This document shows, piece after piece, positions 34,330 through 40,389 of a stretch of 42,765 nucleotides of DNA (within the stretch, counting starts at the first letter, position 1; every line of letters starts with the position of its first letter). The notes beneath the pieces are model-generated. The model searched no databases. It was not told where the DNA came from and was given only the letters and a program-made list of their open reading frames with translations. The position numbers and the translations under genes were made by a program. The DNA is from Nostoc sp. FACHB-280 (GTDB lineage Bacteria > Cyanobacteriota > Cyanobacteriia > Cyanobacteriales > Nostocaceae). The stretch lies in NCBI RefSeq assembly GCF_014697615.1, contig NZ_JACJSD010000056.1, positions 1 to 42,765 of the forward strand, given 5' to 3'.

Positions 34330-34499
34330 CTGGTGAATGAGGATTTTGGCTTGATTAATCAGCTTCGGCACTTCATTAATGAGCTTTGTAACTTCATTAA
34401 TGAAGTATTTTAACAGCTTTAATGAATATTTGAGCTTGATTAATGAGGTTAAAAGACTCATTAATCACTATTAGAACTTGATTAAAGAAGCTTTTTAAC
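34330..34499. repeat. 21-bp tandem array, seven clear units plus one degenerate
   Basis: Units start at 34351, 34372, 34393, 34415, 34436, 34457 and 34478, all 21 bp apart except one 22-bp step; a degenerate unit covers 34330-34350. The consensus is about TTCATTAATGARNNTTTTAAC, with a CATTAATG dyad core. The last unit covers the final codons and stop of trxA (stop at 34482-34484), so gene and array share sequence. The array fills the space between the convergent 33930 gene and trxA. Confidence 0.92.
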
Positions 34500-38200: not shown

Positions 38201-38414
38201 TGGCAGAAATTCTTAAAGCGACTGCGAAGTTAGTCAGTAACAATTGAAAGGCAAATGCCATTAAGACACCAGCCACTAATGCAACTAAAAATTTAGGCCC
38301 AGAAAAAACCACAGATGCTTGTTCTGGAGTTAGTATTTCTTGCACTTCGGTTATGGCTGCTAATCCATTATTCAGCCAATGCCATCCTAAAGAATTTTCG
38401 ACAATTTGAAGCAT
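35295..38414 (-). CDS. Large membrane protein with seven repeated helical units
   Basis: 1039 residues, ATG start. Three N-terminal membrane segments (~41-62, 97-117, 122-145) separated by an acidic DDSSSSDDESLGD loop precede a long soluble region (~165-985), then a C-terminal Ala-rich hydrophobic segment (~1005-1035). The soluble region has seven units of ~95-100 residues. The later ones share 'YLRNTNKEELNPEGIRRD', 'DPRAGxxALRDRLSQ(V/F)DR' and '(T/L)V.LLSQRxDLSEE.VN.I..Q'; the first two are more divergent. No enzyme motif is seen. Such proteins are sometimes labelled MFS transporters in databases, which the sequence does not support. It may be a membrane-anchored scaffold; function unknown. 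Confidence 0.88.
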   Translation of the reverse strand: MLQIVENSLGWHWLNNGLAAITEVQEILTPEQASVVFSGPKFLVALVAGVLMAFAFQLLLTNFAVALRISATNDDSSSSDDESLGDTIRKVENKVGFWALISATIALFIASFFAVKLSLIDSAFLGAIIGVVIWSAYFSIVVWFGSSTVGSLIGAVANTANSGIKALMGTATSAIGANFSKQQMVSTAEDITAAVRRELTSGFDVGSIQNTLQTSLGNLQRPQLDLPNIRKQFDQIFGDINWQSLPDNLTQNFNRQTFVDLISDRTDFSKADVNKIADQLEAAWNQTLARRNPAQQVINLITSATPEELQSDELGDRLQELVTVGGNGNGNNGGISKAIQTGLTAALPVVLERVNVSDIDVNKITNQLQKLKDKVQDLDIENISHQLQETLEKTTQGRGGSSNSNYRQDVESYIQNSLPWHFNRITIKDEFRDVIYDPQADAETMRRELEGFNQEEFANLLIRRSDISEARVKEIAQQMEEIRQEVLATLQQAEVKDKSQDLRNRIENYLRSTSKEELKPEAVERDFSKLLTELNANFDDLNERFQGLTRDVLLQVLQQRQDFSDEEANNLLDNLESVRDSVLNQLQEQATTQTENLRQRVEDYLQNTNKEELNPEGIRRDFSTLLQDPQAGFNLLRQRLSQFDRDTLVSLLSQRQDLNEDEVNQIIDQLESVRNNILQTPQVVADKAKEQYEQTTTQIAEYLRNTNLEELDPEGIRQDLEKLLVDPREGISAIRDRLSQVDRETLVKLVSQRGDLSEEQVERLIDQVQEAITNIIKAPRRLANRTVQQVVDFERNLEDYLRHTNKEELNPDSIKRDLQLLLRDPRAGVGSLSDRLSQVDRSTIVALLSQREDISEEDVNRIADQILSARDVVVKQYRQIQQSVQSATERVRNRIRNYLNSLNRPELDYEGIRHDFAKLFDDPQAGFEALRDRLSQFDRDTLVAVLSSREDISQEDANRIINQIESARDSVLQRAERIQQITKERLHSIQHQAKKQAEETKKTVANAAWWLFGTALTSLVASAIAGAIAVTGLTISAIG

Positions 38415-38555
38415 AGTATTTTCTCATTCATGCTCATTAAATGCCAGTTAATTTGCAAACAACTGGCTACTTCCTACGCTAAGTACCAAATTCTTTAGCT
38501 GACACTTTCTTAGGGGGTAAAGTCTGTTTCCGAAAGTCGTAGTTTTATAGGAGGC

Positions 38556-38610
38556 GGAGAAGTCAAAAGTAAAAAGGCAAAAGTCAAAGGTATTTTTCAT
38601 TTTTGCCTTA
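38556..38610 (+). repeat. Dispersed AAAAGTC-type repeat, copy 2
   Basis: It reads GAAGTCAAAAGTAAAAAGGC and ends TTCATTTTTGCCT, about 50 of 55 bases the same as 20775-20830. The 21-bp array begins two bases after it. Confidence 0.85.
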
Positions 38611-38611
38611 T

Positions 38612-38758
38612 CGACATTGTGAATGTATGACCTGACATTAGCAATGTATCGCTTGACATTGCTAATGTATCGCTTGACATTGTGAATGTATCACCTGACA
38701 TTGCCAATGTATTGCCTGACATTGGCAATGTATCGCCTGACATTGTGAATGTATCGAC
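38612..38758. repeat. 21-bp tandem array, seven exact-length units
   Basis: The motif GACATT begins at 38613, 38634, 38655, 38676, 38697, 38718 and 38739, exactly 21 bp apart. The consensus is TGACATTGNNAATGTATCGCC, with a dyad ACATTGNNAATGT whose two central positions vary (TG, CT, CC, GC), while the arms are almost fixed. On the minus strand it is open throughout as a 7-codon repeat (MSGDTLA-like). Confidence 0.95.
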
Positions 38759-38838
38759 TAACTCTAAAAGATTTGTGTGTACACAGTAGCGCCTTTTAGG
38801 AAAGGGAAACTGGGAGGGAGAGGTTTGTCAAATTCCAG

Positions 38839-40389
38839 TTAAATCACTAAAGGTTCTAGTTGATAATTGTGCCAGTGGCGTTGATACCATTCGGCGACTA
38901 AAGGTCGGACAATAAATTTAGGACGACCTTCGCCTGTGACATCAATTCGCAAGCAGGAGTAAGGACGGCGTTTTTCCGAACCATGACCGTTACGACCAAC
39001 AAACAAATGCGATCGCGCAATTAATTGATTTCCCTCAACTAAATCAGCGCCTTCAGTTCGTTGTCGCCGCAAACTAAACCCACTTCCGCCACACACAATC
39101 CAGTTAATCGCAGAGTCTGCATGTCCAGTGTTATATGTTTGCAAATATTCTAAACAATGAGCATGGCCGTTTAATACCAAATCTACTACAGCACGACCTT
39201 GAGTTACATCACCTACTGTTTCCGCTACTGCGTTGAAAACTTCACGCAAGCGACTACGAATCGCTAATGTTTGTGCTTGTTGCCATTTAGTTGCTTCCGT
39301 AACATAAGGAGGATGATGGAAATAAACTACCCTTCCCCGCACTTGGGAATTCTGCCAAGATGCGATTAATCTTTGTTTTAGCCATTCCAACTGTTCTACA
39401 TCGGTGTGGGTTGCTTGTTGCGGCGCTAATTGTTTGTCAATATCAACTACTAATTCTTCAATTTGCGACAACTTGACGTATAAATCATCCAGATGTTCGG
39501 CTTCGTGGGGATTATCTGGATTCAACTTGCTGGATGTTTCTAGAATTTGCTGTTTTTCTTGTTCAAATTCCTGGCGACGTTGTTCTAAGTTTTTCCGTTG
39601 TGCGTCGCCTTCTGCGGTTTGGGGGAGTGATGGCGGATCGTTGAAGGTATTGGAATCTAAAGCAAAGAAGTCAATCCCACCATAACGAAAACTATAATAA
39701 CGATTTGGCAGACGAGTAAATTTTCCCGGCTGGTAGGACAAACAGCAACCTGTATCTGTTTTGGCGGTGTAGTATGTGTCTAAATGTCGGTCTAAATCAC
39801 CAGGAAACTTCAACCCGTTGAGATAATCAAGAAATGCTTTGGCGTAAGCGTCGCCTGTTCCTGAACCATGTAAACCAACATCCATATCGAGGCGCGATCG
39901 CAATAACCGACGAATTGGTAATGTTGTAACTGATAGCAAGTTAAAGACTAGGGGTAAATCGTAATAATCGTGATTTCCCGGTACAGGCAAAATCGGTACA
40001 CGAAAAGTCATCTTGTCGTAGGCAATTTTTTTAGGAAAATCTCCACCGACAAGATATTCTTTGTAAGGCCGAATAAAGTTTTGCTGATAATACTCACTTG
40101 ACCCCACTAAATAAATGACATCGCCTGTATGCAGCATAAAACGACAGTCATTGAGATGAGGTAATGTAAGTTCCGCTACTTGCCTTTGGGGGTTTTGTCC
40201 CCCATGTCTCCCTGAACCGCTATCTCCGACTACCAAAAACGAAAATTCAGGATTATCGGCTTGACCATCTTCCAATACCAAGTGAGTTTGGTCTATACCG
40301 CGCCTTTTCATTACAGGATCTTGCCAGCGGACTCGCTGGTTCATCTTCTGAATTTTTTTAGCGATCGCCGGATCAGAAACAAGCTTCAA
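38839..40389 (-). CDS. Calcineurin-like metallophosphoesterase
   Basis: 516 residues. The frame starts with TTG 40389, preceded by GAGGAG (40399-40404); a later ATG at 40344 is the alternative. Two-metal phosphoesterase motifs appear in order: FLVVGDSGSGRHGG, MLHTGDVIYLVG, PVPGNHDYYD, VVYFHHPPY and LVLNGHAHCLEY, with a large insert between the GNHD and HHPPY blocks containing a coiled coil (AEGDAQRKNLEQRRQEFEQE). The substrate cannot be read from sequence. The gene is 27 bp after a lipid kinase on the same strand, which suggests an operon. Confidence 0.9.
   Translation of the reverse strand: MKLVSDPAIAKKIQKMNQRVRWQDPVMKRRGIDQTHLVLEDGQADNPEFSFLVVGDSGSGRHGGQNPQRQVAELTLPHLNDCRFMLHTGDVIYLVGSSEYYQQNFIRPYKEYLVGGDFPKKIAYDKMTFRVPILPVPGNHDYYDLPLVFNLLSVTTLPIRRLLRSRLDMDVGLHGSGTGDAYAKAFLDYLNGLKFPGDLDRHLDTYYTAKTDTGCCLSYQPGKFTRLPNRYYSFRYGGIDFFALDSNTFNDPPSLPQTAEGDAQRKNLEQRRQEFEQEKQQILETSSKLNPDNPHEAEHLDDLYVKLSQIEELVVDIDKQLAPQQATHTDVEQLEWLKQRLIASWQNSQVRGRVVYFHHPPYVTEATKWQQAQTLAIRSRLREVFNAVAETVGDVTQGRAVVDLVLNGHAHCLEYLQTYNTGHADSAINWIVCGGSGFSLRRQRTEGADLVEGNQLIARSHLFVGRNGHGSEKRRPYSCLRIDVTGEGRPKFIVRPLVAEWYQRHWHNYQLEPLVI

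What the first reader, a model, noticed from the sequence alone, without database searches (positions are those of the whole stretch)
38612..38758. Second 21-bp array: seven ACATTGNNAATGT dyads, exactly phased
Seven units have exactly 21-bp spacing. The dyad arms are conserved while the two central bases change, the pattern expected if both arms are under selection as a binding site or RNA stem. It lies between the phosphoesterase stop and the promoter of the 1039-residue membrane protein. It shares the CATT/AATG half-sites and the 21-bp step with the trxA array, although the sequences otherwise differ.
Basis: partly seen in the sequence, partly recalled or inferred. Interest (0 to 1): 0.74.

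Follow-up and report, generated by a model that had tools for sequence, protein, structure and literature searches.

The report
Mobile 21-bp palindrome array in Nostocaceae
A row of seven near-identical 21-letter palindromic DNA units, sitting between two genes of a filamentous cyanobacterium, turns out to be one copy of a scattered, partly mobile repeat family whose palindrome arms stay fixed while the rest of the unit drifts, which suggests that a protein still to be found recognises them.

Summary
In detail: seven units of exactly 21 bp at 38613-38759, each with ACATT-nnn-AATGT (7 found, 0.11 expected). It is not peculiar to this locus. Arrays of the same unit occur in 58 of 217 family genomes and 15 of 56 genera, but in 1 of 262 sampled order genomes outside the family. 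Some lie inside short elements bounded by CTACnGTGTACACACAAGT, the ends of a 1487-bp IS4-family insertion sequence. The window copy keeps the right end only. In the orthologous spacer the array is present in 2 of 11 genus genomes (own included), with 7 and 5 units, and absent in 9, so its neighbours do without it. In arrays chosen by that terminal repeat, arm columns changed 5-9 times less often than centre or spacer columns under strict rules, 2-4 times under loose ones; no compensatory pairing was seen. Best reading: a minisatellite carried by a MITE, like BrickBuilt of Porphyromonas, whose dyad is a sequence-specific DNA site, probably for a dimeric protein, repeated every two helical turns. 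Shared ends and length change are shown; mobilisation in trans and the protein are inferred. New variant of a known kind.

The parts
38613..38759 (+). array of seven 21-bp units, consensus GACATTGnnAATGTATCGCCT
38614..38752 (.). seven 13-bp dyads ACATTnnnAATGT starting at 38614, 38635, 38656, 38677, 38698, 38719 and 38740
38760..38770 (-). right subterminal segment AACTCTAAAAG, shared with array elements of relatives (L024, L291, L304)
38771..38789 (-). right terminal inverted repeat; read on the minus strand CTACTGTGTACACACAAAT, one mismatch to CTACnGTGTACACACAAGT
38605..38612 (.). left junction: the left terminal repeat that many relatives carry next to the first unit is missing here; G204 has the same truncated junction
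38560..38588 (+). neighbouring heptamer repeat (AAGTCAA) of the short-tandem-repeat type known in cyanobacteria; outside the element

Best explanation
This is a truncated copy of a dispersed minisatellite of Nostocaceae. One carrier form is a short non-autonomous element: an IS4-family terminal inverted repeat, a lead of about 9 bp (TGCTGCATC, TGCTTCATC and variants), one or more 21-bp dyad units, and a second terminal repeat. Shown: the shared ends, the fixed phase at the left junction, unit numbers from 1 to 14 behind that end, and copy-number change and presence or absence between orthologous spacers. Inferred: that an IS4-family transposase moved the element in trans, that unit number changes by slippage or unequal recombination (which also spreads variants between units), and that each dyad is a sequence-specific site for a dimeric DNA-binding protein, the 21-bp step (two turns of B-DNA) putting all sites on one face; this would keep the arms fixed while centre and spacer drift. 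Many arrays without these ends exist, so the unit also spreads or persists outside the element by a route not identified here.
For: Same terminal repeat and same junction phase: 19 of 19 loci with at most one mismatch to GTGTACACACAAGTTGCTnCAT have their first dyad starting 3 bp after the CAT; over all 30 loci read (31 places found in 217 genomes) 21 have two or more dyads. Unit numbers there run from 1 (L299) and 2 (L278) to 14 (L280). The same ends bound 1487-bp elements in G199, G200 and G201; the 446-aa protein of L075 is an IS4-family transposase (NF033590, 374 bits, cut-off 160), those of G201 and G200 are 93% and 89% identical to it; target duplications read by eye are 10 bp in L075 and 11 bp in L077. 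Array elements with two ends and an imperfect target duplication: L296 (7 of 9 bp) and L278 (9 of 11). The window has the right end. Orthologous spacer: 7 units in the window, 5 in G204, none in 9 others; in G204 one arm change (CACT for CATT, read on the minus strand) sits in 3 of 5 units, a mark of spreading between units. Constraint on arms: 149 units of 18 terminal-repeat-anchored arrays, mismatch to own consensus 1.8% arms, 18.6% centre, 15.0% spacer; distinct changes per column 1.4, 12.0, 12.1. With units accepted on the 13 non-arm columns only: 1.25, 7.7, 6.4 (13 arrays, 110 units). Spacing behind the terminal repeat: 107 of 120 steps between intact dyads are 21 and 119 of 120 are multiples of 21.
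Against: The window copy has only one terminal repeat and no visible target duplication, and the 9 array-free spacers differ over the whole block, so a clean empty site was not seen. G202, with the protein nearest to the window's, lacks the array while the more distant G204 has it, so loss or exchange must be assumed. Only 2 of 8 two-ended array elements show a recognisable target duplication. Only 10 of 51 distinct arrays have the terminal repeat within 120 bp and 3 mismatches (not a random sample). A strong transposase match (E at most 1e-100, some of them partial or with stops) is in 19 of 217 family genomes, not in the window's own, and in 2 of 13 genomes with terminal-repeat-anchored arrays, so most copies must be stranded. 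For the binding step: no protein is known and I ran no search for one; isolated ACATTnnnAATGT sites do not appear enriched (0 in 400 kb of the own genome, 0 in 400 kb of G223; 6 in 352 kb of G360, a stretch that includes an array). Arms do break and spread in places (G204; ATTG for AATG in L301; L288; L091). Looser rules for accepting units shrink the arm effect to 2.3-3.5 fold, and in 22 units at array edges the arms were about as variable as the rest. The anchored arrays still had to hold two intact dyads to enter the test. Part of the centre and spacer variety may be old shared variation.
Confidence: 0.65

Rival explanations
1. A neutral minisatellite: replication slippage helped by weak DNA hairpins in each palindromic unit keeps making arrays; arms look conserved because only intact palindromes expand.
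For: Presence, absence and copy number change at the locus; variants spread between units; elements with one and two units exist; the array folds better than shuffles as a single RNA strand (z -3.5 and -5.0); units at array edges show no special arm conservation (22 units).
Against: This needs pairing, not a given sequence, so paired changes should be tolerated; none was seen at the outer pair within arrays, and all 18 anchored array consensuses keep the same eight arm letters. The eight unrelated 21-bp arrays tested in the sampled stretches exist without a significant dyad.
Confidence: 0.25
2. Cis-regulatory operator array for the 1039-aa gene or the phosphoesterase operon.
For: It lies about 200 bp upstream of the 1039-aa gene; another array of the family lies about 1.2-1.3 kb upstream of the phosphoesterase start in 3 of 11 genus genomes, where the window has the start of a diacylglycerol-kinase-like gene.
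Against: Absent from 9 of 11 orthologous spacers although the roughly 130-nt leader next to the gene is largely conserved in all 11; no promoter beyond shuffle level in 38300-39000 (1 found, 1.6 expected); arrays elsewhere sit in mixed contexts.
Confidence: 0.05
3. A transcribed RNA hairpin array, with neighbouring units pairing (units 2+3 and 5+6 have complementary centres AGC/GCT and GCC/GGC).
For: Predicted 13-bp stems between neighbours in the window.
Against: Over 66 arrays neighbouring centres are complementary in 8 of 418 pairs, permutation mean 7.55, P about 0.5; no Rfam match at the array at E up to 1.
Confidence: 0.05
4. A heptapeptide-coding repeat (DIxNVSP, 21 bp = 7 codons).
For: One frame on each strand is open in most units.
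Against: A stop in unit 1 and no reading frame of 100 aa over the array; third codon positions of the arms are as fixed as the others while a second codon position (TCG/TTG) varies.
Confidence: 0.01

Closest known systems
BrickBuilt MITE of Porphyromonas gingivalis (PMC4596501; abstract and the section on its identification read)
   Same: Minisatellite inside an inverted-repeat-ended, non-autonomous intergenic element; leader and tail; unit number from 1 upward; some copies lack leader or tail; conserved and non-conserved positions within the unit.
   Different: 23-bp unit in one species; here 21 bp, with a conserved dyad, ends shared with an IS4-family element, over 15 genera, and most sampled arrays have no such ends.
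IS4-family insertion sequences of cyanobacteria (NCBIfam NF033590; among the 12 plasmid records listed, the nearest that bears an IS name is ISSysp3 family, about 64% aa identity)
   Same: Terminal inverted repeat shared with the array elements (the ends of ISSysp3 itself were not compared).
   Different: The arrays carry no transposase gene.
Small dispersed repeats (SDR) of Nostoc punctiforme, Elhai et al. 2008 (recalled; the paper is not held)
   Same: As recalled: 21-27 nt repeats in Nostoc relatives, some inside minitransposons.
   Different: As recalled they are dispersed single insertions, not tandem 21-bp arrays; sequences were not compared.
REP/REPIN elements (PMC3116915; passages read)
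   Same: Short extragenic palindromes, thought to spread in trans, also reported for Nostoc punctiforme.
   Different: REPINs are doublets linked to tyrosine transposases; here head-to-tail arrays linked in part to an IS4-family transposase.
Heptamer short tandem repeats of Nostoc (PMC4692102, abstract and passages read)
   Same: Intergenic, length-variable tandem repeats.
   Different: Unit of 7 bp; the array here has no 7-bp sub-period.

Membership tests
MITE derived from an IS4-family element (window copy) | terminal inverted repeats on both sides | tested here: not met
   right repeat present with 1 mismatch, best left match has 8 mismatches
MITE derived from an IS4-family element (relatives, e.g. 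L296 in G111) | terminal inverted repeats on both sides | tested here: met
   L296 with 1 and 0 mismatches; 8 array-bearing two-ended elements listed, up to 5 mismatches allowed at the right end
MITE derived from an IS4-family element | target-site duplication | tested here: inconclusive
   2 of 8 array elements, imperfect; 9-11 bp and exact, by eye, in five array-free elements with the same ends (L080, L082, L084, L088, L089)
MITE derived from an IS4-family element | ends shared with an autonomous element carrying a transposase | tested here: met
   1487-bp elements L075-L077, IS4-family transposase NF033590
MITE derived from an IS4-family element | transposition by that transposase | not testable with these tools
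   no experiment possible
Minisatellite | head-to-tail units of 10-100 bp with varying copy number between strains or species | tested here: met
   7 units in the window, 5 in G204, none in 9 others
Operator array of a DNA-binding protein | arms conserved above the rest in arrays chosen through another feature | tested here: met
   strength depends on the acceptance rule, and edge units do not show it
Operator array of a DNA-binding protein | a protein that binds it | not testable with these tools
   none identified, none searched for
RNA stem | compensatory changes in the arms or between units | tested here: not met
Iterons of a plasmid or phage origin | located beside a replication initiator gene | tested here: not met
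   neighbours by Pfam: phosphoesterase, diacylglycerol-kinase-like gene, a 1039-aa protein without a clear family; no similar sequence in the phage set
Small dispersed repeats (SDR) | sequence match to a published SDR family | not tested
   paper not held

The most novel reading that the evidence does not exclude
Nostocaceae genomes carry a whole class of 21-bp-phased arrays, of which the CATT-nnn-AATG family is one. They serve as two-turn, one-face platforms for one or more dimeric chromatin-type proteins or element-borne binders that are still unknown, and they spread as passengers of transposons.
Probability: 0.2. Interest if true: 0.75.

Novelty: new variant of a known kind. Interest (0 to 1): 0.5.

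Why it matters
Bacterial minisatellites are commonly treated as neutral markers. Here is a family, found in about a quarter of the family genomes searched (58 of 217), in which one part of the unit appears constrained in arrays that come and go between species. That gives a concrete bait for a DNA-binding protein and a natural series of array lengths from 1 to 14 units. If the constraint belongs to the element, it offers a view of how non-autonomous elements may use internal binding sites.

Tried and rejected
Rejected: pairing between neighbouring units as a general rule (8 of 418); covariation of the outer arm pair within arrays; coding heptapeptide; promoter or terminator; known RNA family; phage relation; host-wide operator with isolated sites; other inverted-repeat ends around arrays that lack the IS4-type ones (only 3 of 51 flank pairs, L007, L037 and L181, reach the 99th percentile of random pairs, and these carry the IS4-type repeat). 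A first arm test on 22 units at array edges showed arms about as variable as the rest; the per-column figures over all units are biased, because most of those arrays were found with patterns that contain the arms. A plasmid hit in Nostoc sp. UHCC 0926 (75% over 146 bases, 6 places) had no annotation and its sequence was not examined. Paper searches listed no description of this family, judged by titles, abstract starts and the passages read; most subscription papers are not held.

Rows dropped before counts: one search read 30 of 31 places; one search dropped 3 of 21 arrays (L278, L288, L305) that kept only one accepted unit, and L288 is a decayed array with several broken arms; one search reduced 66 arrays to 51 by near-identical left flanks; one search left 19 arrays lying in reading frames of 80 aa or more (probably chance frames) and 1 unknown out of the context tally.

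Full report
What is there. The window holds seven 21-bp units at 38613-38759, consensus GACATTGnnAATGTATCGCCT, with steps of exactly 21 bp. Each has the dyad ACATTnnnAATGT; these seven are the only ones in the window, with 0.11 expected by shuffling. The three-base centres are GTG, AGC, GCT, GTG, GCC, GGC, GTG, which gives a 63-bp super-period. The array overlaps no reading frame of 100 aa and lies between a metallophosphoesterase gene and a gene for a 1039-aa protein, both on the minus strand.

A family, not a single locus. A strict two-unit pattern was found in 3 of 195 order genomes and a looser one in 7 of 11 genomes of the genus; both counts include the window's own genome. A scan of named genomes gave ten loci, in Nostoc, Calothrix and Trichormus, from which I take the family to be Nostocaceae. 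A three-unit pattern with up to two mismatches hit 58 of 217 family genomes, 15 of 56 genera; the reversed control pattern hit one genome, G313, with 7 matches. Hit counts differ widely: four genomes of genus g133 have 21 to 224 hits, while two of eight genomes of genus g101 have none. Outside the family, a four-unit pattern hit 1 of 262 genomes (G104, with a different spacer). In the window's own genome at least two further arrays lie at C19:83810 and C28:73565.

The terminal repeat. Many arrays begin a fixed distance after GGCTACnGTGTACACACAAGTTGCTkCAT and some end before its inverted counterpart. A 22-bp pattern built on it, with up to two mismatches, was found in 11 of 11 genus genomes. 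Pairs of the 19-bp repeat bound two kinds of element: 1487-bp elements with an IS4-family transposase (L075-L077) and short elements of about 140-460 bp, most with other interiors, at least five of them with exact 9-11 bp duplications by eye. Searching for the repeat plus its lead, without the array letters, gave 31 places in 21 of 217 genomes. Of the 30 loci read, 21 have at least two dyads next to it, and all 19 with at most one mismatch do, with the first dyad 3 bp after the CAT of the pattern. Behind this end the number of units runs from 1 to 14. The window keeps the right repeat at 38771-38789 and lacks the left one; G204 has the same left junction. Among 51 distinct arrays only 10 have the repeat within 120 bp and 3 mismatches (the sample was gathered by several searches and is not random). 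So the element is one carrier, not the whole story. A strong transposase match is rare (19 of 217 genomes, some partial or with stops) and absent from the window's genome, which has only a 78-residue fragment match; of the 13 genomes with anchored arrays, G219 and G220 have it. Two of eight two-ended array elements show an imperfect target duplication.

The locus in relatives. All 11 genus genomes have the phosphoesterase. Between its stop and the next gene, the window has 7 units, G204 has 5, and 9 have none, including G202 and G195, whose phosphoesterases are 97% and 95% identical. In G204 one arm change (CACT for CATT on the minus strand) sits in three of five units. The roughly 130 nt next to the 1039-aa gene are largely conserved in all 11. 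The array-free spacers differ over the whole block, so the insertion point itself cannot be read. A different array of the family lies 1.2-1.3 kb upstream of the phosphoesterase start in G196, G197 and G203 (3 of 11), where the window has the start of a diacylglycerol-kinase-like gene.

Are the arms really constrained? Patterns that contain the arms cannot tell, and edge units of such arrays (22) showed no arm effect. I therefore used the arrays found through the terminal repeat, with the one condition that two dyads be present. In 18 arrays with at least three accepted units (149 units), arm columns differ from their own array consensus in 21 of 1192 cells, centre columns in 83 of 447 and spacer columns in 224 of 1490; distinct changes per column are 1.4, 12.0 and 12.1; 129 of 149 dyads are intact. 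When units were accepted on the 13 non-arm columns alone the figures were 1.25, 7.7 and 6.4 (13 arrays, 110 units); at looser thresholds 3.75, 13.0 and 10.1, then 6.6, 17.0 and 15.0, probably as non-array sequence entered. Arms do break: in L301, in L288, in G204 and in a related array in L091, where ATTG replaces AATG (by eye). In the anchored arrays the first centre base (G) is also nearly fixed, so the conserved motif is not fully symmetric.

What kind of constraint? At the outer pair within arrays there is no compensation (285 of 406 paired, 289.8 by permutation). The association of that position across arrays (285 against 235 expected from column make-up) may reflect common descent. Neighbouring centres are complementary no more than by chance (8 of 418), although in the window two neighbouring pairs are, which gives the strong predicted folds. 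Fixed letters rather than fixed pairing, with 119 of 120 anchored steps being multiples of 21, fit a sequence-specific protein site better than a stem. The protein is unknown, and isolated sites do not appear enriched, so the binder may belong to the biology of the element itself.

A wider pattern. In stretches chosen without regard to repeats, and in the window, I counted tandem arrays of at least 4.5 copies and period 10 or more. Period 21 makes 6 of 19 rows in G223 and 3 of 17 in G360, the commonest period in both; 2 of 8 in the own genome (tied with 15) and 1 of 2 in the window (rows can overlap). Eight of these, in G223 and G360, have sequences unrelated to the array here and no significant dyad. 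Whether the common period has a common cause is open.

Comparison. The closest described case is BrickBuilt (PMC4596501), a 23-bp minisatellite in a MITE of Porphyromonas gingivalis, with leader, tail and 1 to 22.8 units (abstract and one section read). The case here differs in the conserved dyad, the IS4-family ends, the wide spread and the many copies without ends. Small dispersed repeats of Nostoc punctiforme are recalled and were not compared. I therefore file it as a new variant of a known kind, and the window copy as a truncated relic of it.

Noticed in passing
window 34354-34486: The trxA-side spacer holds ATTAAT dyads with steps 21, 21, 43, 21 and GATTAATC against CATTAATG variants; same step, but no three-base centre.
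   Followed up: partly
L199:12116-12332 (G223) and L231:18322-18553 (G360): A second, unrelated 21-bp array family (by eye GCAACTCGwAAACTArCTTTT) shared by two genera; other unrelated 20- and 21-bp arrays occur in the same sampled stretches.
   Followed up: partly
window 38415-38546: About 130 nt upstream of the 1039-aa gene are largely conserved in all 11 genus genomes and, by eye, include an inverted repeat near the start codon; possibly a promoter with a structured leader.
   Followed up: no
L261 around 1500-1620 (own genome C19:83810): An array of the same family in which two spacers contain the octamer GCGATCGC (HIP1, name recalled).
   Followed up: no
L076, L082, L084 (flanks): Elements with this terminal repeat sit in palindromes of the CTCCCC...GGGGAG kind, as if these were preferred targets (by eye).
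   Followed up: partly
L293 (G387): An array interrupted by another short inverted-repeat element (AGACATCTCC ends).
   Followed up: no
L091 (G200): A 461-bp element with the same ends whose longer array has, by eye, ATTG in place of AATG and alternating 21-bp units: a dyad-less derivative.
   Followed up: partly
upstream flanks of L139, L142, L143 (G203, G197, G196): Another array of the family 1.2-1.3 kb upstream of the phosphoesterase start in 3 of 11 genus genomes.
   Followed up: partly
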